A DNA stretch of 64,000 nucleotides, taken from positions 38,109 to 102,108 of the forward strand of contig JASHNR010000001.1 in the NCBI GenBank assembly GCA_030041535.1, given 5' to 3'. A program made the position numbers and the translations under genes. Below the pieces are notes generated by a model, which saw only the letters and a program-made list of their open reading frames with translations, did not search any database and was not told where the DNA came from. Below are positions 11,474-36,995 of the stretch, one piece after another. Every line of letters begins with the position of its first letter. Position 1 is the stretch's first letter. The stretch comes from Nitrosopumilaceae archaeon (lineage in GTDB: Archaea; Thermoproteota; Nitrososphaeria; Nitrososphaerales; Nitrosopumilaceae).

Positions 11474-11758
11474 ATGTTCGTAGTTGTAGTTGAGGTTCAA
11501 CTCAAAAGTGGAGCAGAAGAGGAATTCAAAAAATGGGTAAGTGAATCTAACAAGGATCTTGCCAAGTTTGATGGATTCGTTAACCGAAGATTGCTGGCAA
11601 CTCGTACTGGTAAACATACTCTATTGGTAGAGTTTGAGAGCCAAGAAAAGTTTGAAAAAATGCATCAAACGCAAGAACATTTTAGAATTCAATCAAAGGG
11701 TCATTCATACATGCAAACCCCTCCTAGACCGATATTTTACGAAGTAGTTACCAGCTAG
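11474..11758 (+). CDS. Antibiotic biosynthesis monooxygenase (ABM) domain protein
   Basis: MFVVVVEVQLKSGAEEEFKKWV...ABM-like ferredoxin fold. Confidence 0.65.
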   Translation: MFVVVVEVQLKSGAEEEFKKWVSESNKDLAKFDGFVNRRLLATRTGKHTLLVEFESQEKFEKMHQTQEHFRIQSKGHSYMQTPPRPIFYEVVTS

Positions 11759-16184: not shown

Positions 16185-16269
16185 TTTTTTCATATTATTG
16201 TACAAGTGTAAGACAAATCATGCACTAACCAAAAATTATAAATGTGATCTAGAAGATTACAGAATATGC

Positions 16270-16355
16270 GGCTATGGCATTAGCCTTGAAATAAAAAATT
16301 CTAAACCGCATCAAATGATGCTAATAATGTCTACCAAAATAAAAAATAGGTAGAC
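16270..16355 (+). promoter_or_regulatory. Fluoride riboswitch-like leader, copy A
   Basis: GGCTATGGCATTAGCC..AAACCGCATCAAATGATGCTAATAATGTCTACC..GGTAGAC, ATG 2 nt later; TATA-like TTATAAAT ~30 nt upstream. Confidence 0.9.
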
Positions 16356-16357
16356 AA

Positions 16358-16933
16358 ATGAAAACAAAAAATTCAAAAGGTTCACTTCTTACTGATGTAG
16401 GACTTGATCCTGAAACTGATTATGAATTAGGATTCTATTATGGATATATTTTTGACGGACTCGACGATGAGATCAGACACGACATAATGGAATTGATAGA
16501 CATAAACAAAGTGTTCGCAAGTGCATTTGGTCGAGGTTCTGGCTGGAAGTTTACCAAGTCATCAGTTCGTACAAAACAAATTCTAATGGAACTCTGCAAG
16601 TCTAACCACGAACTGGCAAAACAATTCTGTCAAAGCATTGGAAATCATATGGGAAAGCTTACTGATAGTACACTGAATAGTCTTTTGAACCTTGCAAAAG
16701 ATGATCCTTTCTTTGCAGCTAGACTGGGTTATGAAATTGGATACAATTTTTATAAATTGAAAGAAAATATGACGCAAATTGTATTTGATTTTGCTTCTCT
16801 AAAACTTGATTTTGCACATAAGATGGGGATTGGTGTTAAAGATACTTTTAGCAAGTTGGAAGATGATGATAGAAAACTAACATTGAATTTTGCAAAAAAG
16901 AATAAAAGTTTTGCAAGCGGTATGACAAATTAA
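16358..16933 (+). CDS. Helical-repeat protein of unknown function under leader A
   Basis: ORF immediately after leader; repeating ...FA.xxGxGxG../LAKxNxxFA pattern. Confidence 0.75.
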   Translation: MKTKNSKGSLLTDVGLDPETDYELGFYYGYIFDGLDDEIRHDIMELIDINKVFASAFGRGSGWKFTKSSVRTKQILMELCKSNHELAKQFCQSIGNHMGKLTDSTLNSLLNLAKDDPFFAARLGYEIGYNFYKLKENMTQIVFDFASLKLDFAHKMGIGVKDTFSKLEDDDRKLTLNFAKKNKSFASGMTN

Positions 16934-17320: not shown

Positions 17321-17793
17321 ATTTTTGTCCTAGCATACAAATCAAGAAATGCGTCCACATCTATTGGTTCTTCCATGATTTCAGATATTTGTTCTATCTT
17401 GGTTACTATGGAAAAACACTGTTTCTTGAAACTATCTTCGTTAAATCTCATCACAGTTATCTGTTTTGGGATGTCGACAAATTTGTTCTCCAAGTCAGTG
17501 TTTGTCAAAAGTATGAGATTCAATCCCTTTCCTTGTGCATATCCTATCCCCTGATTAATCGCACTCGAGTTTATGATCTCTGCATCGGTGATGAGAATTA
17601 GGCATATGCTAGAACGCACTATTTCTTTAAATTCTGAGGATATGAAATTACCTTGTAATTCACTATAAACTAACTGTGTCTTGAATCCTTTTTCTTCAAG
17701 TATGGATTTTAAAACACACGCATATGTCTCATAGTCTGTTTTATTGTAACCTATTGAAACTTTGAATCTTGGATGTATCATTTTATGGTTCAC
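17317..17793 (-). CDS. TIR-like nucleotide-binding domain protein
   Basis: FKVSIGYNKTDYE...CLILITDAEIINSSAINQGIGYAQGKGLNLILLT; overlaps both neighbours. Confidence 0.55.
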   Translation of the reverse strand: MNHKMIHPRFKVSIGYNKTDYETYACVLKSILEEKGFKTQLVYSELQGNFISSEFKEIVRSSICLILITDAEIINSSAINQGIGYAQGKGLNLILLTNTDLENKFVDIPKQITVMRFNEDSFKKQCFSIVTKIEQISEIMEEPIDVDAFLDLYARTKI

Positions 17794-18805
17794 TACGATC
17801 CAATTTTCTTGATCTTTGTAAAAAATGCTGAGGACCTTTATTCATTACATCTGTCAAATGATAACGCGCGACATGATGTTTGCCTTTTTTCTTTTTTATT
17901 TCTGTATGTGATGACATGGCAAGTACTTTGTAGCTATTTCGTAGGGTTACTTCGGTTACATGAGACGCTCTTGCAATATTCTTCTGAGTCATTCTAACGC
18001 CGTTTATCACGCAGGATAAGTATATAGCTGCAGCTGCTACCCCTTTTGGGGCCTTTCCTATTCTAATTCCGTCTTCTACTGCGTCATTGAGAATAAGTAT
18101 CGCATTTCGTTTGATTTTTTCACTGACCTCAATATTGCTTGCTATGTGTGCTATGTATCTTATTGGATCTGCTATTGGCATATTTAGATCGAGTTCGAAG
18201 ATAAGTAACCTGTAGCATTTAGCAAGTTCTCTTTTTTGTATTCCTGTTGCCGACGAAATATCTTTCAAAGTTCTCGGAATTCCGCCATCTCTACAAGCAG
18301 CATATACTGAAGCCCCCAGTAAGATTGCTATGGAACGTCCTTTTACAAGGCCTCTTGCAAGAGCTTTTCTATAGATGTGCGCTGATTTTTCTACTATGTT
18401 ATCGGGTAGAGTTATTTTATCTTTTATTCTAGCAAGTTCAGAAAAAGCGATTCTGAGATTTTTTTCAATCAATATTCCACTTATGTTACTTCTGTTATCT
18501 AATTTCTTTAGCTGTATCATCATTGTCTTCATAAAAGGAGATAAAGGCCTTCCAAATGCATCTCTGTACGCAGGATTGATTATTGTTGTTAATCCCTTGT
18601 CTGATCTTGCAAGTGATTGTGCCATGCCACCTGTTTGTTCCCCGTCCTTTGAAAACCCTCTCGCGTTTACCTCGTCTATTCTCTGTTCTAATACTAGGCC
18701 ACATCTGCCACAAATAACTTCTCCAAGCACGGTGTCTGTAAATATTGATTCTTTAAGGCATCTAGGACACTGATTCTGCTTTGTGTTGCTTATATTGCGT
18801 TGCAT
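17783..18805 (-). CDS. tfb: Transcription initiation factor TFB
   Basis: CPRCLKESIFTDTVLGEVICGRCGLVLEQ zinc ribbon plus cyclin repeats. Confidence 0.93.
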   Translation of the reverse strand: MQRNISNTKQNQCPRCLKESIFTDTVLGEVICGRCGLVLEQRIDEVNARGFSKDGEQTGGMAQSLARSDKGLTTIINPAYRDAFGRPLSPFMKTMMIQLKKLDNRSNISGILIEKNLRIAFSELARIKDKITLPDNIVEKSAHIYRKALARGLVKGRSIAILLGASVYAACRDGGIPRTLKDISSATGIQKRELAKCYRLLIFELDLNMPIADPIRYIAHIASNIEVSEKIKRNAILILNDAVEDGIRIGKAPKGVAAAAIYLSCVINGVRMTQKNIARASHVTEVTLRNSYKVLAMSSHTEIKKKKGKHHVARYHLTDVMNKGPQHFLQRSRKLDRSEP

Positions 18806-18807
18806 TT

Positions 18808-19209
18808 TTATCTAGCCCTCTGGCTGAATTCAGCTTTTAAAAGACGCATTATCAAAAACGCAACTTTTAACACATCACTTCTCTTTTCTATGTAAATGTA
18901 CAATATTTCCTTATCCAAAGGAAAGATCATTGTTATTATTGGGCCATAAGATATAGTGAAATCTTGTGGCCCAATATGACGATCGTGTTCTCTTCTCATC
19001 CTCACTCCTAATGCTATTTCCATTAGCAATACTTCATCTTGTAGCCCCAACCAACGCGTGTCTGTTTTGTTTTTTTTACTTTGAGCAAGTAATTTTCCCT
19101 TGTCATCAATTATTCCAACAAACACTATATTGGAATCTAAGTTAAGGACTCTATCACAAACAGATTCTAATGCATCAGTTTGTATAGTCATGTTCTGATT
19201 CCTTACCAT
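18808..19209 (-). CDS. Roadblock/LC7-like conserved thaumarchaeal protein
   Basis: ALESVCDRVLNLDSNIVFVGIIDDKGKLLAQSKK; overlaps preceding small ORF. Confidence 0.6.
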   Translation of the reverse strand: MVRNQNMTIQTDALESVCDRVLNLDSNIVFVGIIDDKGKLLAQSKKNKTDTRWLGLQDEVLLMEIALGVRMRREHDRHIGPQDFTISYGPIITMIFPLDKEILYIYIEKRSDVLKVAFLIMRLLKAEFSQRAR

Positions 19210-19339
19210 TTAATTGAGCATTAGAACGGGGGTGGAGTCGTACAATGTTAGATGACTCTGGATCTCTTTGTATGTTTGCCCAGTTTATTGTGGGAATATA
19301 TCCCTGAGTATACTCCGCATTTTTCTCTTTGTTTGTCAT
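19175..19339 (-). CDS. 54-aa small ORF directly controlled by leader B
   Basis: Hand translation MTNKEKNAEYTQGYIPTINWANIQRDPESSNIVRLHPRSNAQLNGKESEHDYTN; overlaps start of downstream gene. Confidence 0.55.
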   Translation of the reverse strand: MTNKEKNAEYTQGYIPTINWANIQRDPESSNIVRLHPRSNAQLNGKESEHDYTN

Positions 19340-19342
19340 TTT

Positions 19343-19424
19343 GTCTACCTTTTATTTTGGTAGACATTATTAGCATCATTTGATGCGGTTTAGAATTTTT
19401 TATTTCAAGGCTAATGCCATAGCC
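19343..19424 (-). promoter_or_regulatory. Fluoride riboswitch-like leader, copy B
   Basis: Reverse complement GGCTATGGCATTAGCC..AAACCGCATCAAATGATGCTAATAATGTCTACC..GGTAGACAAAATG. Confidence 0.9.
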
Positions 19425-19559
19425 TACTTAATATGCGACTATCCGCCTTTTATTCTTTTTTAAAATACTAATTGTGGACTGGTCAAGAAATTGAACATAC
19501 ATAAAAAACCGAGATATATAAAACATCTAAATCATAGAGCAGCTATTTGTATTTGAAGA

Positions 19560-19978: not shown

Positions 19979-22018
19979 TTACATGATGATAAAGAAAGTG
20001 TACAACAGAACAAAAATGAATGCTGCCATAATGTATATGAGGTAAACGAAAATCTTACCAGGCATGACTTTTCTGGCAGTGTGGTATGACAGAGATAGCG
20101 TAAATTTTGTCAGTATGTCGTAGAATTTTTTAAAGACATCTAAAACTTCTACTTCAACGATGTATTCTTCAGGTGACAAAATGACTGGCCTACGTGTAGC
20201 GCCAACTTGGATGATCCTCTCCTTCGTTCTGAATAGGAAACTTAACATTATTCTAATTGGTGTGCTGTAACCAAACGAATTATACAACTCAAATGTATCA
20301 TTTGGCTGGTTCTGGCCACTAAACCAACCATGCGTTCTCCTCACTTTCCATTTTGTGCCCCATCTTGTTATGATAAATGGTATTACAAGTAAGCCTGTCA
20401 TAAAAACAGCTACAAATGTTGGAGAAAATCCGCCAAACGGTTTTCCTGATAAAATAACAAAATATGCCGGAATTCCTAAGAGCCCAGTGACAAACGTATC
20501 AAATGTTTTTTCCTGTAAAATCTGATTCGTACTGCTTGAGGCAAGGAAAAACACCCCTGGTGCCATTACTCCTATGCCAACCACAAGAAACAAGAAATAG
20601 TAAAAACTTGTTCGTATCGATAACATTTGCTGAAAGACATTTTTGATTTTCAAATCTGTCGTTCCAGACCATAAAATACCAAATCCATATGCTTTAGTCA
20701 TTGCAATAATTATTATGCCAGCAGCCAATGCTGTTATGGCTCCAGTTATGGTTCCAATTATCTGGCTAGTAACATCTCCAAATCTGAATGATTGAAACAA
20801 TGCTTCTAGAATCATCCACTCTGATACAAATCCCGCAAGTGGGGGTACAGCTGCCAACGAGAACACTGTAATGATTCCGGACAGGTAGGAGCCTCTTCTC
20901 TCATCCTTGGAAATGGGAACTTGATTATTAAGATCAAAACTTCCCTTAACCTTGCTTATCCAACCCATGATTAAGAATAATGACGCCTTGGATATAGAAT
21001 GCGAAAATGCATGATACAGTGCAGCTACTAAGGCAAAACCCCCAAGTAATGTAAGATGATAATAAGATGATAAAAGATAGACACCAATGGCTACTATGAT
21101 CAAACCATTATTTTCTATAGTGCTGTATGCCGGTAATCCTTTATTGTGCTCTGATACCGATGCAAATAAAGCGCCCAACAGAGTCGAAATTCCTCCGATG
21201 GCAAGTGTAATCCAACCCCACCACAGTTCTGATTGACCAAGATGAGTTAAGACATTGATATATCCGTAAACGCCCATCAGAGTCAAAGTAGCTGAAAGAA
21301 TGGCTGACGCATTAGATGGTGCGTTTGAGTGAGCAATGGGTAACCATTCGCTCATATGAAATGGCGCAATGCCCATCTTTAATCCAAATCCTACTAGTGC
21401 AGCGACAAAAACCCATGAAGCGGTAATCCCACTAACATGAATTGTTGATATTGAAAGAAAGTCAAAACTCCCAAAAGATGAAAACATTCCTCCAAAGGCT
21501 AACATGATAAATACTGTACTTGCCTCTCCAAACCCTAAAAAGAGAAACGCGGCTCTTCGGATGACGTCTGGTTTGCCTTTTCCCATGAGAATCATGAAAA
21601 AAGAAGTTATGGTCATTGATTCCCATCCTACCAGAAATGAGACTGCATCTCCGGCCAAAATTATGACAACCATGGATAACATTGTAAGAACAAGCAGAGA
21701 TGCTAACCCCCTTGGATAATCGTCATATCTTAAAGAGTACAAGCATGTTCCAAGCCAGACAAGGCAGCAAATAAGCAAGAAATAGGCATTAAAAGAAGAT
21801 AATGAAAATTCAAATGTACTATGTTGCGTTACTTTCCAAAATGTCAGATCTATTGGAGTGGTGTTTGCCAAAAGCATCCAAAATGCTAAGATGATTCCAA
21901 AAGATGAGCCTATTATTCCAAGTGTGTAGCATGTTTTTTTAGAAATATATCCAATTACAGAAGCAGAAGCAAATGAAGCAAAGATTCCAATAATGGTAAC
22001 AGTCTGTATTATGTCCAT
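19979..22018 (-). CDS. NuoL/HyfB-like antiporter subunit of Ehr/complex I-like complex
   Basis: Proton_antipo_M-like: GWESMTITSFFMILMGKG...LPIAHSNAPSNASAILSATLTLMGVYG. Confidence 0.88.
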   Translation of the reverse strand: MDIIQTVTIIGIFASFASASVIGYISKKTCYTLGIIGSSFGIILAFWMLLANTTPIDLTFWKVTQHSTFEFSLSSFNAYFLLICCLVWLGTCLYSLRYDDYPRGLASLLVLTMLSMVVIILAGDAVSFLVGWESMTITSFFMILMGKGKPDVIRRAAFLFLGFGEASTVFIMLAFGGMFSSFGSFDFLSISTIHVSGITASWVFVAALVGFGLKMGIAPFHMSEWLPIAHSNAPSNASAILSATLTLMGVYGYINVLTHLGQSELWWGWITLAIGGISTLLGALFASVSEHNKGLPAYSTIENNGLIIVAIGVYLLSSYYHLTLLGGFALVAALYHAFSHSISKASLFLIMGWISKVKGSFDLNNQVPISKDERRGSYLSGIITVFSLAAVPPLAGFVSEWMILEALFQSFRFGDVTSQIIGTITGAITALAAGIIIIAMTKAYGFGILWSGTTDLKIKNVFQQMLSIRTSFYYFLFLVVGIGVMAPGVFFLASSSTNQILQEKTFDTFVTGLLGIPAYFVILSGKPFGGFSPTFVAVFMTGLLVIPFIITRWGTKWKVRRTHGWFSGQNQPNDTFELYNSFGYSTPIRIMLSFLFRTKERIIQVGATRRPVILSPEEYIVEVEVLDVFKKFYDILTKFTLSLSYHTARKVMPGKIFVYLIYIMAAFIFVLLYTFFIIM

Positions 22019-22798
22019 CTAGAGGCCACCTTTTGATCCTGGTATTCTCTCATCCTTTTCAATTTTGTTCATGCATAGAAGCAAGCCCTGTAGGATCTGA
22101 ATTGGTGAAGGCGGACACCCAGGAACTGTTACATCGACAGGTATTACTTTATCAATGGACGAGACAAAACTTTCAGTCTCCTTAAAGATTCCGCCACTTA
22201 TGGCGCATGCACCGATTGATATTACGAGCTTGGGTTCTGGCATGCTGTCGTAGGTTTGTTTTAAGACATCTACCATAGCTTTGTTAAGCGCGCCAACTAC
22301 AACAAGTACATCTGCGTGTTTTGGTGAATTTGTGAAAAAAATACCTAATCTGGTAAGATCATAATATGGATTGGAAAGATTGAGAACTTCCAAATTACAC
22401 GCATTACAAGAGCCTACATCTATCATTAAAATATGAAAGGATTTTCTAAAGATGTTTGTCTTTTTACTGAATATCCCAGCTACTTCTTTTCTTATTAGTT
22501 CATTTTGAGAAATTTTTGCCTGTAGTGATTTATGTCTATCTTCAGGGTTATCATCGAAGATAAAACCTGCATCAGAACAACGTCTGCAGTATATGCATCT
22601 TCCAAGGTCCAATGAATTAGTGTTATTTTCTATTGCATCGGTTGGACATGTTTCTTGTCCTTGAATCCAGTTTGATTCTGGTGCTGCAAAGGGTGGAACA
22701 GATCGAGCTGGAATCTCTTCTTCGGTCGGCTTTTTTTTGGGGTACTTTGTAGTCAGTATCCCATTTTTGATTCCATGTAAAATCCAGAATTTAACCAA
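22019..22798 (-). CDS. HycG/HyfI/NuoB-like small subunit with N-terminal 4Fe-4S ferredoxin domain
   Basis: CPTDAIE..CIYCRRC; DVGSCNACNLEV...SIGACAISGGIF..VPGCPPSP. Confidence 0.88.
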   Translation of the reverse strand: MVKFWILHGIKNGILTTKYPKKKPTEEEIPARSVPPFAAPESNWIQGQETCPTDAIENNTNSLDLGRCIYCRRCSDAGFIFDDNPEDRHKSLQAKISQNELIRKEVAGIFSKKTNIFRKSFHILMIDVGSCNACNLEVLNLSNPYYDLTRLGIFFTNSPKHADVLVVVGALNKAMVDVLKQTYDSMPEPKLVISIGACAISGGIFKETESFVSSIDKVIPVDVTVPGCPPSPIQILQGLLLCMNKIEKDERIPGSKGGL

Positions 22799-22810
22799 TT
22801 CTTGTACACC

Positions 22811-24154
22811 CTATCTATCCGAATCAGCATACGATAATCCGAAACTCTCGTACGCAAATTGAAAGTCAGTAAATACATTTCCTTCAAGACTCTTGGCAAA
22901 TGGTAGCCAGTTGACAAGTGAGGGAGGTCTAATATGTAAAAATTTGATATAGCCTTCTTTATCAAGTTGAACCACTTGTATGAGATCTCCACTGGGACTT
23001 TCTATTCTGCAAAATGAAAAGTTATCTTGCATGTAATTTAACCCATTGTCAGACGTTTTATCTGACATCGTCTCATCTGAGGGCATTCTGTCTAAAAGCT
23101 GTTCTAGCATGAGCATACTTGACTGAATTTCTCTGATTCGCACCATTGTTCTTGACATCGTGTCTTCCTCGTCTTCGGTCTCAATCTCAACAAAAATGTC
23201 ATTGTATGGCTCAATTGGGTATGTAATCCTGTCATCCCAATCAATTGCAGAAGCTCTTGCAGATGGGCCTACAGCTCCTAGCTTTAGTGCATCCAAGTGT
23301 GGTAATCTGGCAGTATTTTGCAGCCTGTCCAAAAATATTCTAGATGAAAGAAAGTATGTGACAAGATGAGAAAAATCACGAGTTATGTTCTTGATATCGT
23401 TTACAAGATCCTTTCTTCTGTCTTTAGTGAAGTGATTTTGGTAAACAGATCCAATTCGATTAAAGCCAAATAGATATCTGTGGCCGAAATATTTTGCATT
23501 GATCCTAAGAACTCTTTCTTTTAACACATTTGCCTCCGCGGCAGCTACGTTTTGTGTAGCCGTTTCTGATAATCGGGCAAAAACGTGTAAATGATTGTAA
23601 ATTCTTTCCAGTTCTATTGCAACTGCTCTCATCCATCTTGATCTTGAGGAAACTTGCAAGCCCAGTATGTTCTCAATGGTAGTTACAAAACAAGTGGAAT
23701 ATGAAGCAGAAAAATTCCCTGCCGACCTTTCAACTAAAAGTAAGGCATCTTCAGGTTTCATGCCTATTGCTTTATGTTCAACGCCTCTTTTCTTGAAATT
23801 AATCTGTGGAACGACTTTTACAATGCGTTCTCCATACGTTATTAGTTTAAATCCTCCAGCTTCTGTAACTCCGGCACTAACTGGACCATAGGAAAAGGAA
23901 AAAACTCCATATCCCTCAACCTTGCTACCTGTGTCTAGGTTAATTTGAGCTCCTGTTTTTTCCTCTGATTTTAGAAGAATATCTGCCTCTTCACTAAGTT
24001 TGGAAGGAACTGTGCTCAAAATTGTTCGTTTCTTCTCGATGTCTGAGAGCAACGCCAATGTTCTGCCTTCTATCTCAAATATGGCTGAGATCTGAATACT
24101 GTCGCTACTCTCTGCAACATCCTTTCGTTCTATAAAACTAGGAATCAATCCCAT
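22811..24154 (-). CDS. HycE/HyfG/NuoCD-like large subunit lacking NiFe ligands
   Basis: ERSAGNFSASYSTCFVTTIENILG at L1 position; SFGLSYADSDR at L2 position. Confidence 0.85.
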   Translation of the reverse strand: MGLIPSFIERKDVAESSDSIQISAIFEIEGRTLALLSDIEKKRTILSTVPSKLSEEADILLKSEEKTGAQINLDTGSKVEGYGVFSFSYGPVSAGVTEAGGFKLITYGERIVKVVPQINFKKRGVEHKAIGMKPEDALLLVERSAGNFSASYSTCFVTTIENILGLQVSSRSRWMRAVAIELERIYNHLHVFARLSETATQNVAAAEANVLKERVLRINAKYFGHRYLFGFNRIGSVYQNHFTKDRRKDLVNDIKNITRDFSHLVTYFLSSRIFLDRLQNTARLPHLDALKLGAVGPSARASAIDWDDRITYPIEPYNDIFVEIETEDEEDTMSRTMVRIREIQSSMLMLEQLLDRMPSDETMSDKTSDNGLNYMQDNFSFCRIESPSGDLIQVVQLDKEGYIKFLHIRPPSLVNWLPFAKSLEGNVFTDFQFAYESFGLSYADSDR

Positions 24155-24162
24155 TCCACATC

Positions 24163-25620
24163 CTATTTCATTCCTGTGACGGCATCAAGAAATACTGGTA
24201 ACATGTATATTCCAATTATCAATGATATAGTAAGATTTACAAAAGGAATTAAAACAGAAATAAAATTTTCTTTATTGGTCGGTGTTAATCTCACATCTTT
24301 ACTGATAGACAATGAAGAATTCGCTGATGCATTTGTTTCATCTTCCTTTGACTGTTGACCAAAAATCATTGAAATTGTTTGTCTATTCAAACCTATGAAC
24401 GCATACATGTAGACAATTGCCAGTATTGCAGCTAAAATAAAATTCTGTGCTATTATAGCTTGTGTGAGAATCATAAATTCGCCAAGAAAGACTCCGAAGG
24501 GAGGTGCACCAGTTACAGAAAAACAAGACAGTGTAAAAAGATAGGAGGTTGTTTTGAGTTTATTTATGACCCCTTGTGCATCTTGCATCTTTGTACTGTC
24601 ATAAGCAACAGCTATGTTTCCTGATGAATAGAAGGCGGCTGATTTTGCAAAGGCATGTGATACTATCTGAACAATGGCTCCGAGTGTACCTATTCCACCT
24701 AATGCAAATCCGACTAGAATTATTCCCATGTTCTCCATGCTGGAATAGGCCAGCATTCTCTTGTAGTTTCGCTGATATCCCATTATTATTGCAGCAATTA
24801 GAGCAGTCAAAACACCAAACCCAATTACCAAATTCTGCAAGTCAGCAAATGTCTGACTGCCTTGCAAAAGGACAAACGTCCTCATAAATGCATAAAGTGA
24901 AGTTGGTAGGAGGACTGCAGAGAACAAAGCACTAACAGGAGATGGTGCTTCACTATGTGCGTCTGGGAGCCAGGTGTGCATGGGTACTATGCCAGCTTTT
25001 GTGCCATATCCAACCAGGGCAAAGCCTACCGCCATGGACATTATCATGAAATTATTGATAGGTTGGTGCAACAATGTGCTGAACTCCAGAGTTCCTTGTG
25101 AGGTAGATACGAAGATCACAGACAAAAGGGAGATGACAAGGCCAGCTGATACAATCAAAGTGTATCTCCATGCTGCCTCTACACTGGTTTTTTTCCTTTC
25201 AAGTGCAACCAGCAAGGCGCTGGTAATGGTGGTAGCCTCTACTGCAAGCCAAACAAATCCCAAGTCATTTACAGTTATTGCAAGGAGCATAGTAAATGCA
25301 AAGAGATTGACCAAGCAATAGTACCATCGAAATCTGATGAATGGTTCTTTTATTTTTCTTATGTAAAAAACTGAGTATGATGTAGATGTCAGAAAGATTG
25401 ACGATACTGTTATTGCCATTATCCTAGTTAGACTGTCTGCATAAAAGTAGCCAAAAGTACCAGAAATTCCTAAAACTAACAAAACAAGTGATGTTACAAC
25501 AGTAACAACTGCCGCAGACAGTGAGGCAATTATCTCTACTCCTTGTTTTGGTAACAGAGAAATCAATGATCCTGTTACTGGAGCTCCAAGTAAAATGAAG
25601 AAGATGATTTCTGGCTCCAT
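24163..25620 (-). CDS. HyfF/NuoN-like antiporter subunit
   Basis: AGIVPMHTWLPDAHSEAPSPVSALFSAVLLPTSLYAF. Confidence 0.88.
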   Translation of the reverse strand: MEPEIIFFILLGAPVTGSLISLLPKQGVEIIASLSAAVVTVVTSLVLLVLGISGTFGYFYADSLTRIMAITVSSIFLTSTSYSVFYIRKIKEPFIRFRWYYCLVNLFAFTMLLAITVNDLGFVWLAVEATTITSALLVALERKKTSVEAAWRYTLIVSAGLVISLLSVIFVSTSQGTLEFSTLLHQPINNFMIMSMAVGFALVGYGTKAGIVPMHTWLPDAHSEAPSPVSALFSAVLLPTSLYAFMRTFVLLQGSQTFADLQNLVIGFGVLTALIAAIIMGYQRNYKRMLAYSSMENMGIILVGFALGGIGTLGAIVQIVSHAFAKSAAFYSSGNIAVAYDSTKMQDAQGVINKLKTTSYLFTLSCFSVTGAPPFGVFLGEFMILTQAIIAQNFILAAILAIVYMYAFIGLNRQTISMIFGQQSKEDETNASANSSLSISKDVRLTPTNKENFISVLIPFVNLTISLIIGIYMLPVFLDAVTGMK

Positions 25621-26279
25621 TACCCGCTCAACTGTTCCAAATCTGAAGGCTCTAATGTTTTAAAGACGTCTCTTTGTGCAGAAAGAATTACTCCTATTAC
25701 TACTACTCCAAAAACATCAAGTACGACAGCAAATTCTGTAAGGATCTGGATTCCAGGCGCAATTAAAGCACCAGCATATAGTATTGCATTTTCTTCTTGG
25801 ATGTAACCACACATTTGTGTGAGAGAATTTTTTCTTGTTATGATTAAAAGAAAACCAAGTAAGAGTAGAATAAAAGTAATTGCTACCTGTGGATCAGGAA
25901 AATAGGAAGCAAGGACAGATCTGAACATGGCGTACCCAATTATTATGACAATAATTCCTGATAACACAAGCGATGGGGTTTTTTGACTACTCCCAGTTTC
26001 TCTTAGTTTGTGTTTAAAACGCCGTACTTGGTATCGCATAAAGAGTGGAAAAACTACACCACGCATAACCCCTGTTATTATTGCAAGATAGAGTAGATTC
26101 AAATCTCCAGTGTGTAAGAATAAAATTACAATTAGTACTGTAATTATCAAAGACTGGATTGATATGGCTCGTATTGTTGGATCTACAAATGACTGACCCT
26201 GCATATACAAGCTTGTTAATATTGTAGAGATTCCAAGAAACCCAACAATTTCGTCATAAAATGGAATCACAAATGTCAA
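25620..26279 (-). CDS. HyfE-like membrane subunit (NuoK-related)
   Basis: Multi-TM protein, position and pattern of HyfE. Confidence 0.75.
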   Translation of the reverse strand: MTFVIPFYDEIVGFLGISTILTSLYMQGQSFVDPTIRAISIQSLIITVLIVILFLHTGDLNLLYLAIITGVMRGVVFPLFMRYQVRRFKHKLRETGSSQKTPSLVLSGIIVIIIGYAMFRSVLASYFPDPQVAITFILLLLGFLLIITRKNSLTQMCGYIQEENAILYAGALIAPGIQILTEFAVVLDVFGVVVIGVILSAQRDVFKTLEPSDLEQLSG

Positions 26280-27247
26280 TTTGTAATGCCCTTTCCAACT
26301 AGGAATAGTGATAGCACAGAAAGTAGTGCTAAACTAAAGGCGATTGCAAGAAAATCTAGAATTTTAAAAAGACGCAGCTTGGCAAATGTTTCTTCAATTA
26401 TGACCACTACGCCCACTAGTACTAGTAGCTTGAGAAATAGTGTGCCAACCGAATAGAGAGCGCCTGTAACGCTGACATCGCCTGACATCCACCACGGAAT
26501 GACAAATACATTAAGAAAGATTGACATTAGAAGAAATTGTTTCATGTAACCTCCCCATCTTGAGAGGGCAAGTAACTTGCCTGAATATTCTATTATTTTT
26601 GCATCATCTATCATGCCAAATTCTACTAGGCCGGAGCTTTCAACGGGAAGGCGTCCAGTTTCTACCAAGATGAGCATAAAAAATGCGACCATTACTAGTA
26701 CGTGTGTAGAAGAAAGATACCAAGAGGCTGAGCCTGACAAGAGATTGTTAGTTACATATGGGTTGTCTGTTCCCGTGATCATGGCAACTGCGATAAAGAT
26801 CATTATCAAAGTAGGTTCTGCTAGGGCAGTGAAAGATGCACTTCGACTAGCCCCCATTGCAGAATAGTTAGTACGCGCATCTATTGCTGCAATTATGCTG
26901 ACAATTCCTGCAAGTCCAAACATAAGGGCACCACCGAGCAAGTCCAGCAGGATGCCATACGGAAGAGGATATGGAGTCACAATTGGGACCACTAGTGATA
27001 TCACTAAATATGCTGTAAATGAAATGAAAGGTGCTATGATGAAGATTGACGATGATCTTTCTGGCACAACAACTTCTTTTTTGAGAAGTTTTGAAAGATC
27101 GTAGTAAGGTTGAAAAATTGATGGACCATGTTTTGATTCAATCATTGCCTTTAGACGATTTATGATTCCAGCTATTAGGGGAGAAAGAAACATGACGGTC
27201 CCAACTTGTATTATATTTATGATTTGGAGAGTTTGCTCATTGTTCAT
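26276..27247 (-). CDS. HyfC/HycD/NuoH-like membrane subunit
   Basis: LAGIINRLKAMIESKHGPSIFQPYYDLSKLLKKE; ETGRLPVESSGLVEFGMIDDAKIIEYSG. Confidence 0.9.
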   Translation of the reverse strand: MNNEQTLQIINIIQVGTVMFLSPLIAGIINRLKAMIESKHGPSIFQPYYDLSKLLKKEVVVPERSSSIFIIAPFISFTAYLVISLVVPIVTPYPLPYGILLDLLGGALMFGLAGIVSIIAAIDARTNYSAMGASRSASFTALAEPTLIMIFIAVAMITGTDNPYVTNNLLSGSASWYLSSTHVLVMVAFFMLILVETGRLPVESSGLVEFGMIDDAKIIEYSGKLLALSRWGGYMKQFLLMSIFLNVFVIPWWMSGDVSVTGALYSVGTLFLKLLVLVGVVVIIEETFAKLRLFKILDFLAIAFSLALLSVLSLFLVGKGITN

Positions 27248-27383
27248 TATTTTCGCCTTGCCAAGTTACCTGTAGTCGTGTGGTGCTGAAATTCTGTTGT
27301 ACATTAAGCATATGAAAAGTTATTATCGCTTTCACGTGATTGATTGATATGCTTATTTTTGTCTCTTGATTTTTGTTTATCAT
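27237..27383 (-). CDS. 48-aa small ORF directly controlled by leader C
   Basis: Hand translation MINKNQETKISISINHVKAIITFHMLNVQQNFSTTRLQVTWQGENNEQ; stop overlaps the start of the NuoH-like gene at 27247. Confidence 0.55.
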   Translation of the reverse strand: MINKNQETKISISINHVKAIITFHMLNVQQNFSTTRLQVTWQGENNEQ

Positions 27384-27386
27384 TTT

Positions 27387-27468
27387 GTCTACCTATTTTT
27401 TACATTTTGGTAGACATTATTAGCCATGTTTGGCAGTTTAGACCAAAGTCTTGGCGAATGTCATCGCC
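27387..27468 (-). promoter_or_regulatory. Fluoride riboswitch-like leader, copy C
   Basis: Reverse complement GGCGATGACATTCGCC..AAACTGCCAAACATGGCTAATAATGTCTACC..GGTAGAC; P1 compensatory change T-A to G-C. Confidence 0.92.
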
Positions 27469-27736
27469 ATATTTATCACTAATTAATAGCTACCTTAAAA
27501 GTTTCTGTCATGTCTGTCTTTTGCGCTATATGTAACTGATTCGCCTGAATTGTGTATTTTAGATAGAATGATTTTATGTATGTCTATTGACAAGAGCAGA
27601 AATTTTACAAAAGGATCATTGCAAGTTGTATACTCATTTAATACATCTGTCTTTTTCTTACACAATTTTTTCTAACCATATTCGAAAACCAGGTTTTACA
27701 AAAACATTATATGTATTAACATGCAAATAACAAACA

Positions 27737-27824
27737 GGCTATGACATTAGCCATGGATTAGAGATCCGAAACTGCTCAAAAGAGATGATAATGTCTACTC
27801 AAGAGGAAATTAAAATGAGTAGAC
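27737..27824 (+). promoter_or_regulatory. Fluoride riboswitch-like leader, copy D
   Basis: GGCTATGACATTAGCC..AAACTGCTCAAAAGAGATGATAATGTCTACTC..GAGTAGAC; most divergent copy, platform stem covaries. Confidence 0.82.
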
Positions 27825-27862
27825 AAAAAATAAAATCAAATGAAAAGAGAGGACAAGGATAG
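27815..27862 (+). CDS. 15-aa small ORF between leader D and ferredoxin
   Basis: MSRQKIKSNEKRGQG, TAG, then in-frame TTG start of ferredoxin at 27866. Confidence 0.3.
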   Translation: MSRQKIKSNEKRGQG

Positions 27863-28497: not shown

Positions 28498-28514
28498 AAA
28501 CTATGGGTAGACAA

Positions 28515-28661
28515 ATGAAAACAAATAATTCAAGAGGTTCGCTTCTTACTGATATAGGACTTGATCCTGAAACCGATTGTGAATTGGGATTCTATTGTGG
28601 ATATATCTTTGACAGGTTCAACGGTAATGTCAAACACGATGTAATGCATGGGAGAATCTGA
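28515..28661 (+). pseudogene. Truncated 48-codon copy of the 16358..16933 gene with residual leader platform (GGTAGACAAATG)
   Basis: MKTNNSRGSLLTDIGLDPETDCELGFYCGYIFDRFNGNVKHDVMHGRI versus MKTKNSKGSLLTDVGLDPETDYELGFYYGYIFDGLDDEIRHDIMEL. Confidence 0.75.
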
Positions 28662-28663
28662 CC

Positions 28664-28978
28664 ATGGATGGTAAAAAGATGTGGCGTCTAGTACTACAAT
28701 TTAAGAAAGATGACAAGATAGGTAAAGCACTGCTAAGAAATGAAGTTTTGAACATTCTAAAGAAAGGAGAGATTTCAGGTGCAACCGAGTGGATCGGACT
28801 AGGGGGATATGGTAAACATGGAACATATTATGCTCAAATAGAAGGAATGCAGTTTAACGCTCCATGCATTATCGAGACAATAGATGAATTTGAAAAATTC
28901 CGAGTTATACTTCCAATGTTAAAAGAGATAATAAATGATCATGGAATTATTACACTTCATGAGGTTCTAGTAATCTGA
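28664..28978 (+). CDS. DUF190 family protein
   Basis: ISGATEWIGLGGYGKHGTYYAQIEG; paralogue of 36992..37306. Confidence 0.85.
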   Translation: MDGKKMWRLVLQFKKDDKIGKALLRNEVLNILKKGEISGATEWIGLGGYGKHGTYYAQIEGMQFNAPCIIETIDEFEKFRVILPMLKEIINDHGIITLHEVLVI

Positions 28979-30100: not shown

Positions 30101-31387
30101 TTATGAGAACAAATTGGAAGACATTTGGCTTAATTCTTCTATCTGCATTAGTCTATTGTATTTTGTAATACGTTCTCCACGGGCAGGTGCTCCTGCTTTG
30201 ATTCCGTTTGCTGCAATACCGACAGCAAAATCAGCCAACCAATCATCATTAGTTTCACCAGATCTATGACTTGCTATTACATTCCACGAATCAGAAAAAG
30301 CTACTCGAGCTGCTTCTATAGCTTCAGTCAAGGTCCCTATTTGATTTACTTTGATTATGACTCCATTTGCTGTATGCCTTCTAATTCCTTCGGTAATTCT
30401 TGAGTGGTTTGTTACAAAAATATCATCTCCTATGATGGAGGTTTTCTTGCCTAATTCTTCAGTAATCCTGATAAATGATTCAATATCATCTTCTTGAAAA
30501 GGATCTTCGATGATTTTTATGTGGTATTTGTCGACCAATCGACAGTAATAATTAAGCAACTCTTCAGAATTAACCAGTTTGTTGTCGATACTGTATTTTC
30601 CTTTAGATGAATCAAAAAAGCTAGAAGCAGCACAGTCCATACCTAACACTACATCTTTTCCAATATTGTAACCACATTTCATTATGGCATCAGAAATATG
30701 AGACAATGCCAATTCATCATGGCCAAGCACTGGTGCAAAGCCTCCTTCATCTCCGACATTAATTGCTGATTTGTTTATTTTTGTTGCTAGTATATTTCCT
30801 AATTGATGATAAATTTCTGAACCCATCCTAATTGATTCTTTTACACTTTTTCCTAGACTAACTGGTAATATCATAAATTCTTGTATTGCAAGCCCACTTC
30901 CAGAATGTTTACCACCGTTTATGATGTTCATAAAAGGAATGGGAAACGACGGAGCATGTTCTGTGCCATTGAACATTTCAGAAATATGCTGGTACAGATG
31001 AATTTTCTTTGTTCGTGCTGCTGCCTTTGCACATGCTATGGAAACTGCAGTGGTCGCATTTGCTCCAAATCTTAGTTTTTCAGAGTCACTTGCCTCGATC
31101 ATAATCTTGTCGATCTCATCTTGGTTTGTGTAATCTCTATCTCTTAGCAATGCAGATATCTTTGTGTTTACGTTATCAACTGCGCGCAAAACTCCTTTGC
31201 CAAAGAATCGTTTATTGTCGCCGTCTCTGAGTTCACGAGCTTCATTTTTTCCTGTTGATGCGCCAGAAGGAGATGATGCCACAGATCTAATGCCCGATTC
31301 GGTAATGACTTCTACTTCAATTGTTGGATTTCCTCGGGAATCAAGAATTTCTCGTGCTCGCAATAATTTGATTTTAGCTGTGGTCAC
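30101..31387 (-). CDS. eno: Enolase
   Basis: AREILDSRGNPTIEVEV; NVGDEGGFAP; KVNQIGTLTEAIEA; SHRSGET. Confidence 0.97.
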   Translation of the reverse strand: MTTAKIKLLRAREILDSRGNPTIEVEVITESGIRSVASSPSGASTGKNEARELRDGDNKRFFGKGVLRAVDNVNTKISALLRDRDYTNQDEIDKIMIEASDSEKLRFGANATTAVSIACAKAAARTKKIHLYQHISEMFNGTEHAPSFPIPFMNIINGGKHSGSGLAIQEFMILPVSLGKSVKESIRMGSEIYHQLGNILATKINKSAINVGDEGGFAPVLGHDELALSHISDAIMKCGYNIGKDVVLGMDCAASSFFDSSKGKYSIDNKLVNSEELLNYYCRLVDKYHIKIIEDPFQEDDIESFIRITEELGKKTSIIGDDIFVTNHSRITEGIRRHTANGVIIKVNQIGTLTEAIEAARVAFSDSWNVIASHRSGETNDDWLADFAVGIAANGIKAGAPARGERITKYNRLMQIEELSQMSSNLFS

Positions 31388-31853: not shown

Positions 31854-32027
31854 AATTTGTCTGTCTTTTTCAGTAGTTCTTTATACGCGTAATCGTTTGT
31901 ATTATGAATAACCTATCAATTTATTTAACTAGATAAAACAAATGCCCTGTGATTAGATCTCATCATCGCACAGCAAAATTTTTTAAAAAAGATTAAAAGT
32001 GAGTATGGCTAATGTTAATGTAGTTTA

Positions 32028-32116
32028 GGCTATGATATTAGCCTTGGAAGAAAATTCCTAAAATGCATCTCATGAGGTGCTAATAATGTCTACCAAAATG
32101 TAAAAAATAGGTAGAC
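32028..32116 (+). promoter_or_regulatory. Fluoride riboswitch-like leader, copy E
   Basis: GGCTATGATATTAGCC..AAAATGCATCTCATGAGGTGCTAATAATGTCTACC..GGTAGACAAAATG. Confidence 0.9.
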
Positions 32117-32119
32117 AAA

Positions 32120-32305
32120 ATGAAAGAACTAGAATCCATAGTAGGCTCATATAGGCAAAATTTGTTATCGTTAAATCAGAGTATCGTTTCACAAATTTTA
32201 GAGTATGATAGAAAACTTCACAGACTAATTTTTGTCCTTTATTGTGTACTCTGGCATCAGCGTTTCAAAGCAATTGTTTTATCAACTTTCAGAAGGAAAA
32301 GATAA
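32120..32305 (+). CDS. 61-aa small ORF directly controlled by leader E
   Basis: MKELESIVGSYRQNLL...; stop/start overlap TAATG with next gene. Confidence 0.55.
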   Translation: MKELESIVGSYRQNLLSLNQSIVSQILEYDRKLHRLIFVLYCVLWHQRFKAIVLSTFRRKR

Positions 32306-33589: not shown

Positions 33590-33718
33590 AATGGTTGATG
33601 AAGATATGCTCAAATCACTGTACTAACATGTGAACAAGAAAACTTCAGACGATATTCGGATCTCTTTTTGCCTGACTGTTAGAGTTATAAAGGCATAAAG
33701 AAGTGACAGAAATTAAAC

Positions 33719-33804
33719 GGCTATGACATTAGCCATGGAATATTCCTAAACTGCGTCAGGATTGATGCTGATAATGTCTACCTAATGGAATCTAACAGGT
33801 AGGC
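33719..33804 (+). promoter_or_regulatory. Fluoride riboswitch-like leader, copy F
   Basis: GGCTATGACATTAGCC..AAACTGCGTCAGGATTGATGCTGATAATGTCTACC..GGTAGGC; TATA-like GTTATAAAGG upstream. Confidence 0.9.
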
Positions 33805-33806
33805 AA

Positions 33807-33950
33807 ATGAACATAAAAAATCAAAATGAATCGGATGTAGACTGTCTCTTTAGTGATAATGTTAATTGTATTTTTAATGTTGTAGAAAAAATAAACATTG
33901 AATCAATTTCTACAAATACTCATCTTTCAAAAATCATGGGATTCACATGA
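33807..33950 (+). CDS. 47-aa small ORF directly controlled by leader F
   Basis: Hand translation MNIKNQNESDVDCLFSDNVNCIFNVVEKINIESISTNTHLSKIMGFT; ATGA overlap with TFB start at 33947. Confidence 0.6.
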   Translation: MNIKNQNESDVDCLFSDNVNCIFNVVEKINIESISTNTHLSKIMGFT

Positions 33951-34852
33951 CTCTAATCATAAAAAAAGAACAAGCATGTAACGTGTGTAAGAAAGGAATC
34001 ATTATATCAGATATGGAAATTGGCGAACTAGTTTGTACTAACTGTGGTTTTGTTCTTCTTGAAAAAATGGAAGATCAAAGCCCGGAACGAATAATCACTG
34101 GTGAAGGTTTTAAGACTACAAGAATTGGGTCTTCATATTCGCTTGCAAAGCATGATAACGGGCTTGCGACTGTTATTGGTAATGTAGATCGTGACGCATT
34201 TGGAAGACCGCTTTCAGCTTCTATGAAATACAAGATTGACAGGCTTAGGATGTGGGATACCAGAAGTCAAGTTCATACTACAAAAAGCAGAAATTTTCGT
34301 GCGGCTTTCAGTTTACTTGATCGATTAAGAGATTCACTAGTACTTTCATACATGGTAAACGAAAAAGCGGCACATATCTATAGAGTTGCAGTTGGAAAGG
34401 GGTTAGTTAAAGGAAGAACTATTTCTGACATGATGGCTGCATCTGTTTATGCTGCATGTAGACATACTGAAACACCACGTAGCCTAAAAGAAATTTCAAG
34501 GGGAGCTAATCGAGATAGAAAAACCGTAGCTAAATGTTACAGACTACTCCTCATAGAACTTGATCTAAACATGCCTATAGCAGATCCAATGAAATGTGTA
34601 GCAAAAATTGCAAGCAAGATAGATATGAATGAAAAAATAAAACGTAAAGCACTAGAGATCATCAGACATGCTACTGAAGTAGGTATTGCAGTGGGAAAGG
34701 ATCCAAATGGTTTTGCCGCATCTGCGTTATACCTTTCTTGTGTGATAAGCGGTGTTAGAATAACTCAGAAGAGTGTTGCACAAGCAGCTGGGGTAACCGA
34801 AGTTACTCTAAGAAACAGGTACAAAGGGCTGAAAATAATATGTTTGCAGTAA
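33947..34852 (+). CDS. tfb: Transcription initiation factor TFB (second paralogue)
   Basis: CNVCKKGIIISDMEIGELVCTNCGFVLLEK; DRDAFGRPLS; cyclin repeats. Confidence 0.93.
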   Translation: MTLIIKKEQACNVCKKGIIISDMEIGELVCTNCGFVLLEKMEDQSPERIITGEGFKTTRIGSSYSLAKHDNGLATVIGNVDRDAFGRPLSASMKYKIDRLRMWDTRSQVHTTKSRNFRAAFSLLDRLRDSLVLSYMVNEKAAHIYRVAVGKGLVKGRTISDMMAASVYAACRHTETPRSLKEISRGANRDRKTVAKCYRLLLIELDLNMPIADPMKCVAKIASKIDMNEKIKRKALEIIRHATEVGIAVGKDPNGFAASALYLSCVISGVRITQKSVAQAAGVTEVTLRNRYKGLKIICLQ

Positions 34853-35213
34853 AAAGTAGATACGCCATAACACTCAAGTTTTGAAGAATGAAATTTCTAC
34901 GACAAAGATTCACCGCATTTCAATAATTGGTAAATCTTCAATGAATGCGAAAAGATCCTTTTTCTTGGTTTTTTTCGTTGTCACAATACTGTCGTTTGCA
35001 GTAAATTTTCTAATCGTACTATCAAAGCACCAAAAACTATTTTCATCATGAAATTGGATACTATGTGGGTTCTCTCCTTGCTTCCTCCACCATAGGATCA
35101 TAATTGCCATCATAGTGACAATAATGTGGAAGAGAATATATCGTATCTGAAATTAAATGACGAGATTCGGATCGTAAAAACCTTTAAAGGTGTGGTGTAA
35201 AGATGAGACACTA

Positions 35214-35301
35214 GGCTATGACATTAGCCTTGAAATAAAAAATTCTAAACCGCATCAAATGATGCTAATAATGTCTACCAAAATGTAAAAAATAGGTAGG
35301 C
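35214..35301 (+). promoter_or_regulatory. Fluoride riboswitch-like leader, copy G
   Basis: GGCTATGACATTAGCC..AAACCGCATCAAATGATGCTAATAATGTCTACC..GGTAGGCAAAATG; TATA-like CCTTTAAAGG upstream. Confidence 0.9.
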
Positions 35302-35304
35302 AAA

Positions 35305-36474
35305 ATGATAGACAAAAAACAAAAAATATGTGAAAGCAAGACGTTGTCTTGTTCTTTGGTACTGGTTACAGTCATTATATTTGGCGTGTCTGTTGTACCT
35401 GCACATGCAGTAGAACTAAATGCGATACTTAGCTCTACATCAACTAGTGCACAACCGTCATTTGTATTTGAAAGGTCATATGTGATTGATTATCCAAACG
35501 GGGGAAATCTGGAAAATCTCCTTAGTGGAAAAAATGTCACCATGACTTATCATGTTGATCCATCTGATCCCATGAAGAAAGCATTGATAAACAGTCTTAA
35601 CCAACAAATATCTCAAGGCCTCGGTAGTGCTGCAAACATCACAGATGTTGATATTACATACGAGGCGATGCTATATCCTAGTAATTCCGAGACTCATGTA
35701 GATTATAAGATAACATTTATTCCAACTGTATCAAATTATGTGTTAAGAAAGGCCACAAGTGATAGCGCGGCAATACTTGATGTCCAGTGGATGGGACTTA
35801 CGGTAAATGGTACCATGATGGTGAATATTCCAAACTATGGTCAGTTTGATCTCAACTCGCCAATTGATTTTATAAAAATGCAATCTCCAGAACTTTACAC
35901 ACAGTTACAGGGAACTGCTGCAGGGAATCTATTTGACGATCCATTGATGGCATCAAATGATCTTCTGCTTGATCCGATATCCCAGTGGCAGCATCTGTTT
36001 GACCCAGCCTATACGCTGGTCGATACCAATATTCTTGGATACAAGGGACAAAAAATAGTCATCTCTACATATAGTACTGGCGAGAGCAACATAAGTGAAG
36101 GACGAATGCTTCCAACTGTTAAGAATGCTGATTTGAAATTAGATGTGGATTATCCAGTCAGCTACACCGAAAGAGCAAGCTTGGCCAGTATCCAAATTGA
36201 TGGTTACGTAGCTGTGACAGACATTAACGAAATAGAATATTTTGGCTCAAGCCCGCAGGCGCCTCAAGGCAGCGGTATCTCGTCAACTGGGGATTATCCA
36301 GTCCAAGTGATATATTCAATGGCAGCATTTGGTGTGGTTGTAGCAATAGGGGTGTTTTATTGGAGTAGTAGAGTAACAAAACAAGAAAAAGCAAGAGCAA
36401 ACGAAGTTGTTGGACCTAGTGGTCCTATTCAGTATGAAGAGAGAAAACACTGGGCAGATAGATTTGATCAATAA
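35305..36474 (+). CDS. Secreted/membrane-anchored protein of unknown function under leader G
   Basis: N-terminal signal-like segment (VTVIIFGVSVVPAHAVE), C-terminal TM segment. Confidence 0.75.
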   Translation: MIDKKQKICESKTLSCSLVLVTVIIFGVSVVPAHAVELNAILSSTSTSAQPSFVFERSYVIDYPNGGNLENLLSGKNVTMTYHVDPSDPMKKALINSLNQQISQGLGSAANITDVDITYEAMLYPSNSETHVDYKITFIPTVSNYVLRKATSDSAAILDVQWMGLTVNGTMMVNIPNYGQFDLNSPIDFIKMQSPELYTQLQGTAAGNLFDDPLMASNDLLLDPISQWQHLFDPAYTLVDTNILGYKGQKIVISTYSTGESNISEGRMLPTVKNADLKLDVDYPVSYTERASLASIQIDGYVAVTDINEIEYFGSSPQAPQGSGISSTGDYPVQVIYSMAAFGVVVAIGVFYWSSRVTKQEKARANEVVGPSGPIQYEERKHWADRFDQ

Positions 36475-36605: not shown

Positions 36606-36995
36606 ATGAAAATGATAGAACTGTTATTTCTTGCAGCCGGAGGAACGGCAGGAACTTTCATAAGATATGGTATTACAAAGTCGCCATTATTACTTGGTAC
36701 ATTACCTGTAAATGTATTGCTTGTAAATGTGATTGGAAGTTTTGTTCTTGGTGCATTTGCAGTATTTTCACAGCAATGGAATCTCGATGAAAAATATGCA
36801 TTGCTTATAGCAATAGGATTTTGTGGAGGGCTGACCACCATGTCATCATTTGCGCTTGAAACTTCAAATCTAATTGATAACAAACAATACATGATAGCTG
36901 CAATCAATGTTATGACTAATGTAGGATTGTCACTTGGAGCCATATTTGGCGGCAAGGCTTTAACAAGCGTGATTCTTGAAGGGGGATTTAGATGA
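36606..36995 (+). CDS. crcB: CrcB/Fluc family fluoride channel
   Basis: GGTAGTFIRYGI...TLPVNVLLVNVIGSFVLGAF...GFCGGLTTMSSFALET. Confidence 0.95.
   Translation: MKMIELLFLAAGGTAGTFIRYGITKSPLLLGTLPVNVLLVNVIGSFVLGAFAVFSQQWNLDEKYALLIAIGFCGGLTTMSSFALETSNLIDNKQYMIAAINVMTNVGLSLGAIFGGKALTSVILEGGFR

What the first reader, a model, noticed from the sequence alone, without database searches (positions are those of the whole stretch)
27387..27468. Covariation across copies supports P1, P3 stem and a 6-bp pseudoknot
P1: GGCTA/TAGCC in six copies but GGCGA/TCGCC in copy C (double compensatory change). Internal stem: GCATCA/TGATGC (A,B,G), GCCA/TGGC (C), CTC/GAG (D, weak), GCATCT/AGGTGC (E), GCGTCA/TGATGC (F). 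Pseudoknot: loop GACAUU pairs with AAUGUC; A and B have GGCAUU (G-U) and E has GAUAUU (U-G), so pairing persists in all seven. This matches the GAGGCC/GGCCUC pairing of the T. petrophila aptamer.
Basis: seen in the sequence. Interest (0 to 1): 0.85.

Follow-up and report, generated by a model that had tools for sequence, protein, structure and literature searches.

The report
Archaeal fluoride riboswitches controlling stress genes
A relative of ammonia-oxidizing archaea carries seven copies of a known RNA switch that senses toxic fluoride; sequence changes across 116 related copies support the predicted fold, and a matching stretch beside each start codon suggests that fluoride lets the ribosome in and turns on a fluoride-defence gene set.

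Summary
The seven elements are fluoride riboswitch aptamers (Rfam RF01734): six above the gathering cut-off, copy E at E = 6e-5. They are the only copies in the genome and lie in a 19-kb island with the fluoride exporter CrcB. In 116 copies from Nitrososphaeria, P1, P3 and the pseudoknot covary. New here: each window copy is followed by GGUAGAC or a variant at the start codon, complementary to the aptamer's 3' tail (pseudoknot strand plus linchpin U48), so this helix excludes the pseudoknot. Helices of at least 8 bp occur in 55/61 family copies (at most 4/61 in shuffles), and one platform pair covaries. Best model: a translational ON switch, carried on a roughly 105-nt cassette (aptamer, anti-aptamer, AUG, first codons) copied within the genome. 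It precedes CrcB, a complex-I-like complex lacking NiFe ligands, a ferredoxin and two TFB genes, often via short leader ORFs overlapping the gene start. Fluoride binding and regulation were not tested.

The parts
27409..27468 (-). Copy C, fluoride aptamer P1 to UACC: P1 GGCG/CGCC, PK GACAUU/AAUGUC, P2 AGAC/GUCU, P3 GCCA/UGGC
   Evidence: RF01734 46.3 bits; letters
27387..27393 (-). Copy C anti-aptamer GGUAGAC, complementary to GUCUACC at the aptamer 3' end
27237..27383 (-). Copy C leader ORF, 48 aa; its end overlaps the start of the NuoH-like gene by 11 nt
19979..27247 (-). Operon behind copy C: NuoH-, HyfE-, NuoN/M-, 49-kDa-, 20-kDa- and NuoL-like subunits; the 49-kDa subunit has no CxxC NiFe ligands
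   Evidence: Pfam/NCBIfam
16270..16335 (+). Copy A aptamer
   Evidence: RF01734 41.8 bits
16349..16355 (+). Copy A anti-aptamer GGUAGAC; ATG of the 191-aa gene at 16358
19359..19424 (-). Copy B aptamer
   Evidence: RF01734 42.6 bits
19343..19349 (-). Copy B anti-aptamer GGUAGAC
19175..19339 (-). Copy B leader ORF, 54 aa, overlapping the DUF6659 gene (start about 19191), followed by TFB 17783-18805
27737..27799 (+). Copy D aptamer
   Evidence: RF01734 37.6 bits
27816..27825 (+). Copy D anti-aptamer UGAGUAGACA (pairs with UGUCUACUCA and includes part of the start codon); leader ORF 27815-27862, ferredoxin TTG 27866
32028..32094 (+). Copy E aptamer (below the Rfam gathering score)
   Evidence: 31.8 bits, E 6.1e-5; pattern scan
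32110..32116 (+). Copy E anti-aptamer GGUAGAC; leader ORF 32120-32305, AsnC/Lrp-like gene from 32305
33719..33782 (+). Copy F aptamer
   Evidence: RF01734 37.9 bits
33798..33804 (+). Copy F anti-aptamer GGUAGGC; leader ORF 33807-33950 with ATGA overlap to TFB 33947-34852
35214..35279 (+). Copy G aptamer
   Evidence: RF01734 40.1 bits
35295..35301 (+). Copy G anti-aptamer GGUAGGC; ATG of the 389-aa gene at 35305
36606..36995 (+). CrcB/Fluc fluoride exporter, downstream of copy G; the only PF02537 gene found in the genome
   Evidence: Pfam 8.1e-24; TIGR00494 88 bits, cut-off 80.45

Best explanation
Each element is a fluoride riboswitch that most likely works as a translational ON switch. A TATA-like promoter about 30 nt upstream starts the mRNA close to P1 (inferred). 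Without fluoride, the 3' end of the aptamer (pseudoknot strand AAUGUC plus UACC, with linchpin U48) pairs with GGUAGAC or its variant at the start codon, which blocks ribosome entry. [quoted passage not shown] The seven cassettes drive a fluoride-stress set: CrcB exporter, a probably ion-pumping complex-I-like complex, ferredoxin, two TFB factors, an AsnC-like regulator and unknown proteins. Shown: the fold, its covariation, the conserved complementarity, the positions. Inferred: fluoride binding, direction of switching, coupling.
For: Aptamer: RF01734 hits; covariation of P1, PK, P3 and A6.U38; G8, A40, U41 and U48 invariant in 116 copies. Ligand: the genome's only CrcB lies behind copy G, and CrcB is the commonest gene behind copies in relatives. 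Platform: a helix of at least 8 bp between aptamer tail and downstream strand in 55/61 f1 copies and 23/26 f3/f11/f14 copies, against at most 4 in dinucleotide shuffles; pair PK3-5/anti covaries (E 0.0025, second of 1176 pairs); separate re-pairings such as ACUC/GAGU (copy D) and CUCCAG/CUGGAG (G138); MFE folds of all seven contain it; the helix is predicted more stable than the bare pseudoknot in 87/87. Start codons lie 11-21 nt past each window copy, within a few nt of the anti strand or inside it. Leader ends lie -17 to +3 nt from the next gene start in five window copies and similarly in G138.
Against: No fluoride-binding, transcript or protein data. The anti strand was not found in families f2, f20 or f22 (except G215), and f4/f12 use another pairing, so the platform is lineage-specific. 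Only one platform pair passes E < 0.05 in the alignment made without regard to pairing. Promoter and transcription start are inferred from an A/T-rich block. Control of mRNA stability or termination is not excluded.
Confidence: 0.82

Rival explanations
1. Fluoride riboswitch acting on transcription: the GUCUACC/GGUAGAC hairpin works as or with a terminator rather than by blocking the start codon.
For: Bacterial fluoride switches often use an intrinsic terminator overlapping the aptamer (PMC2864571); the hairpin lies in the same place.
Against: The hairpin is followed by AAAAUG, not by a U run, and sits on the start codon in nearly all copies. The one archaeal example tested is described as presumably translational (PMC8241225).
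Confidence: 0.1
2. A fluoride-type fold that now senses another ligand, or a decayed relic spread as a repeat.
For: Copies A, B and G are 88-94% identical and the shared unit is about 105 nt; copy E is below the Rfam cut-off.
Against: G8, A40, U41 and U48 are invariant, pairing is kept by compensatory changes, every copy lies just upstream of a start codon, and CrcB and enolase are in the island.
Confidence: 0.04
3. The leader ORFs carry the function (attenuator or regulatory peptides) and the aptamer is secondary.
For: Short ORFs end at or overlap the next gene start in five window copies and most G138 copies.
Against: Leaders differ in length and sequence (15-61 aa in the window); in relatives some begin like the 389-aa protein and look like its remnant (G133); copies A and G have none.
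Confidence: 0.04

Closest known systems
Fluoride riboswitch / crcB RNA motif, Rfam RF01734 (T. petrophila and B. cereus aptamers)
   Same: P1, P3, 6-bp pseudoknot, A6.U38 and A40-U48 contacts, conserved G8/U41/U48; upstream of CrcB.
   Different: P1 is 4 bp and P2 is a variable hairpin; the expression platform is a start-codon helix, not an intrinsic terminator as in B. cereus; seven copies lie in one island.
Thermococcus kodakarensis fluoride-responsive riboswitch (Speed et al. 2018, as cited in PMC8241225)
   Same: Archaeal, linked to fluoride export, presumed translational control.
   Different: Different phylum; its sequence was not at hand, so the platform was not compared.
Translational fluoride riboswitches of Pseudomonas syringae and Burkholderia pseudomallei (controls in PMC13273304)
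   Same: Control of translation rather than termination.
   Different: Bacterial; platform sequences not compared here.
'Formate hydrogen lyase' genes behind crcB RNAs (PMC2864571, PMC11139923)
   Same: A Hyf/complex-I-like membrane complex directly behind a fluoride riboswitch, also seen here in bacterial loci L150, L151 and L153.
   Different: The 49-kDa subunit lacks CxxC NiFe ligands in all 14 sequences checked, so it is unlikely to be a hydrogenase; it resembles the energy-converting-hydrogenase-related (Ehr) complexes (own knowledge).

Membership tests
Fluoride riboswitch RF01734 | Covariance-model score above the gathering cut-off (34 bits) | tested here: met
   Six copies 37.6-46.3 bits; copy E 31.8 bits, E 6.1e-5, below the cut-off but with all other features
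Fluoride riboswitch RF01734 | P1, P3 and pseudoknot supported by covariation | tested here: met
   class-wide; not significant for the pseudoknot in family f1 alone
Fluoride riboswitch RF01734 | Conserved ligand-site residues (A6, U7, G8, U38, A40, U41, U48) | tested here: met
   All seven copies carry them; G8, A40, U41, U48 in 116/116; A6-U38 is A-U in 103 and G-C in 13, none mixed
Fluoride riboswitch RF01734 | Position upstream of fluoride-stress genes | tested here: met
   CrcB behind copy G; complex-I-like operon behind C; start codons 11-21 nt past each copy
Fluoride riboswitch RF01734 | Binds fluoride with Mg2+ | not testable with these tools
   Needs in-line probing or calorimetry
Translational ON riboswitch | Alternative helix, exclusive with the ligand-bound fold, masking the start region | tested here: met
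Translational ON riboswitch | Ligand raises translation | not testable with these tools
   Needs a reporter or ribosome profiling
NiFe hydrogenase 4 / formate hydrogenlyase | CxxC motifs binding NiFe in the large subunit | tested here: not met
   No CxxC in the window protein or 13 homologues

The most novel reading that the evidence does not exclude
A copy-and-paste riboswitch cassette (aptamer, anti-aptamer, AUG, first codons) has been used repeatedly in one archaeal genus to build a fluoride regulon that includes general transcription factor TFB paralogues, so that one RNA sensor both switches genes directly and redirects transcription initiation through TFB.
Probability: 0.4. Interest if true: 0.7.

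Novelty: new variant of a known kind. Interest (0 to 1): 0.5.

Why it matters
By a 2021 account (PMC8241225) only one natural archaeal riboswitch had been tested experimentally. Here the switch comes with a predicted, conserved expression platform containing a covarying pair, so its mechanism can be tested by simple mutations. It also points to a fluoride regulon with TFB factors and a dedicated complex-I-like complex in relatives of ammonia oxidizers, and the joint A6.U38 to G.C exchange supports a tertiary ligand-site pair from sequence alone.

Tried and rejected
P1 as a 5-bp stem: rejected, no covariation at A5-U12 and the two bases have other roles. Covariation from the family alone: insufficient for the pseudoknot (f1 only: P1-4 E 0.045, P3-2 E 0.005, pseudoknot pairs not significant). 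Terminator platform: no U run after the hairpin. NiFe hydrogenase: ligand cysteines absent. The first genome-contig scan with the 49-kDa subunit found nothing; the NuoH alignment worked. R-scape itself was not available. A structure prediction of the 389-aa protein was considered and left out as peripheral. The RF02172 match at 11495-11566 is far below its cut-off and belongs to a human lncRNA family: chance.

Full report
What is there. Rfam RF01734 matches seven places in the window: C 27404-27477 (-) 46.3 bits, B 19354-19433 (-) 42.6, A 16261-16340 (+) 41.8, G 35205-35284 (+) 40.1, F 33710-33787 (+) 37.9, D 27728-27804 (+) 37.6 and E 32019-32099 (+) 31.8 bits, the last below the cut-off of 34 with E = 6.1e-5. 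A search of the whole 1.83-Mb genome finds no others. A pattern scan that I wrote (P1 pairing, six pseudoknot pairs, conserved joints) finds exactly the same seven in both strands of the window.

One assignment is not: the fifth P1 pair. In T. petrophila numbering (own knowledge of the structure; PMC8752731 for A40-U48) that A is A6, which contacts U38, and the opposite U is the last pseudoknot base. P1 is GGCU/AGCC, with GGCG/CGCC in copy C. The weak P3 of copy D has a G.A at its base; the same A occurs in 7 other copies of the 116 collected, one of them before the orthologous complex-I-like operon of G138, so it is a recurrent variant.

Is it more than chance? I collected 116 copies from Nitrososphaeria genomes. 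My covariation test used a tree-based null in which columns evolve independently; it resembles R-scape but is not R-scape. The inner P3 pairs lie too close in my composite alignment to be in the scanned set of 666 but were scored against the same null. Counting on a plain MAFFT alignment of 65 copies gives 96.3% paired cells, 161 cells with changes on both sides (43 in shuffles) and a score of 0.446 (0.173 in shuffles; none of 500 reaches it); shifting partners by one to three columns lowers the score to 0.045-0.122. Within family f1 alone only P1-4 (0.045) and P3-2 (0.005) reach E < 0.05, so the seven copies could not have proved the pseudoknot.

The expression platform. Downstream of each window copy stands GGUAGAC or a variant, complementary to the aptamer's last bases GUCUACC. 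GUC belongs to the pseudoknot 3' strand and the following U is U48, whose pair with A40 is the fluoride-dependent linchpin in B. cereus (PMC8752731). The two pairings exclude each other. Helices of at least 8 bp occur in 55 of 61 f1 copies and 23 of 26 f3/f11/f14 copies; the highest count in 100 shuffles was 4 in each. In an alignment made without regard to pairing, the pair between pseudoknot position 5 and the anti strand is second of 1176 (E 0.0025). That base is U in most f1 copies and C in f3, with A or G following in both its partners, a three-way agreement. Single re-pairings exist: copy D UGUCUACUCA/UGAGUAGACA, G138 before NuoH AUGUCUCCAG/CUGGAGACAU. Families f4 and f12 lack this helix and instead place a complement of the P3 5' strand (CCGCUCGC/GCGAGCGG) downstream in 10 of 12 (at most 2 in shuffles): a second solution to what looks like the same task. 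Predicted duplex energies favour the anti helix over the bare pseudoknot in 87 of 87, which fits a default-OFF switch; these are crude, without tertiary or ligand terms.

The cassette. Similarity among the window copies begins at P1 and ends a few codons after the AUG, about 105 nt; A, B and G are 88-94% identical. A/T-rich TATA-like blocks lie near -25 to -36 from P1 in f1, f3 and f4, suggesting that each copy has its own promoter and that transcription starts close to P1 (inferred). In A and G the AUG opens the gene. In B, C, D, E and F it opens a short ORF (54, 48, 15, 61, 47 aa) after whose stop the next gene starts at -17, -11, +3, -1 and -4 nt; G138 shows the same habit. I take this as translational coupling; it is inferred.

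The island. Behind the copies lie: A, a 191-aa protein without Pfam match; B, DUF6659 and TFB; C, a six-gene complex-I-like operon; D, ferredoxin and further on DUF190; E, an AsnC/Lrp-like protein and a 239-aa protein; F, TFB; G, a 389-aa protein (probably exported, judged from its hydrophobic N-terminus), CrcB and DUF190. An enolase and an HAD-type phosphatase lie between; enolase is a known fluoride target (PMC11139923), and the genome has a second, different enolase. G138 (same genus; its 65,450-base contig corresponds to JASHOW010000025.1, Nitrosopumilaceae archaeon JOPF033) holds a rearranged version with eight riboswitches and many of the same genes at 32-87% identity. Other genomes with the element have one to three copies, commonly before CrcB.

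The complex. Among 201 family genomes only G138 has a close homologue of the 49-kDa subunit (73%); others are 28-38%. NuoH relatives in other Nitrososphaerota, Thermoplasmata, Spirochaetales, Eremiobacterota and Solirubrobacterales records were found, and fluoride riboswitches, or strings fitting the pattern, lie upstream in several, for instance L135, L138, L147, L148, L150, L151 and L153; in others, such as L133, L136 and L143, none was seen. The link to fluoride is therefore recurrent in both domains and agrees with the 'formate hydrogen lyase' noted for crcB RNAs (PMC2864571). No CxxC motif is present in the 49-kDa subunits checked, so a hydrogenase is unlikely; an ion-pumping complex that restores the membrane gradient strained by fluoride and acid is my preferred reading (inference).

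Verdict. The translational platform, its covariation, the cassette copying and the TFB targets are the new parts. My searches of the held library showed no paper on fluoride riboswitches in these archaea, but that library lacks most subscription journals.

Noticed in passing
window 28503-28661 (+): GGGTAGACAAATG followed by a 52-aa ORF resembling the N-terminus of the 191-aa protein behind copy A, with no aptamer upstream; it precedes DUF190 at 28664. Looks like a cassette fragment.
   Followed up: partly
116 riboswitch copies; families f4, f12 and one f20 copy: The ligand-site pair A6.U38 is exchanged as a unit for G.C: 103 A-U, 13 G-C, none mixed.
   Followed up: yes
f4/f12 loci such as L090, L094, L100, L105: A different platform: the P3 5' strand CCGCUCGC is complementary to GCGAGCGG just before the start codon.
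   Followed up: partly
L150 (Spirochaetales record DAHVAK010000082.1): Five fluoride riboswitches within 13 kb, one directly before a NuoH-like gene: a bacterial fluoride island.
   Followed up: partly
L112 and L061: Fluoride riboswitches directly before genes with a MutS domain V, in line with the mutS association in PMC2864571.
   Followed up: no
L039 472-978 (-): A TIR-domain gene stands behind a fluoride riboswitch in G138.
   Followed up: no
L018, L020, L033, L038 and others: In many relatives the first gene behind the riboswitch is a 340-520-aa protein, with a cupredoxin (plastocyanin-like) domain in those tested.
   Followed up: partly
window 30101-31387 (-) and G000:C54:93568-94377: Two distinct enolases in the genome; the island one scores 335 bits against Enolase_C, the other 203. 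The island one has no riboswitch of its own.
   Followed up: partly
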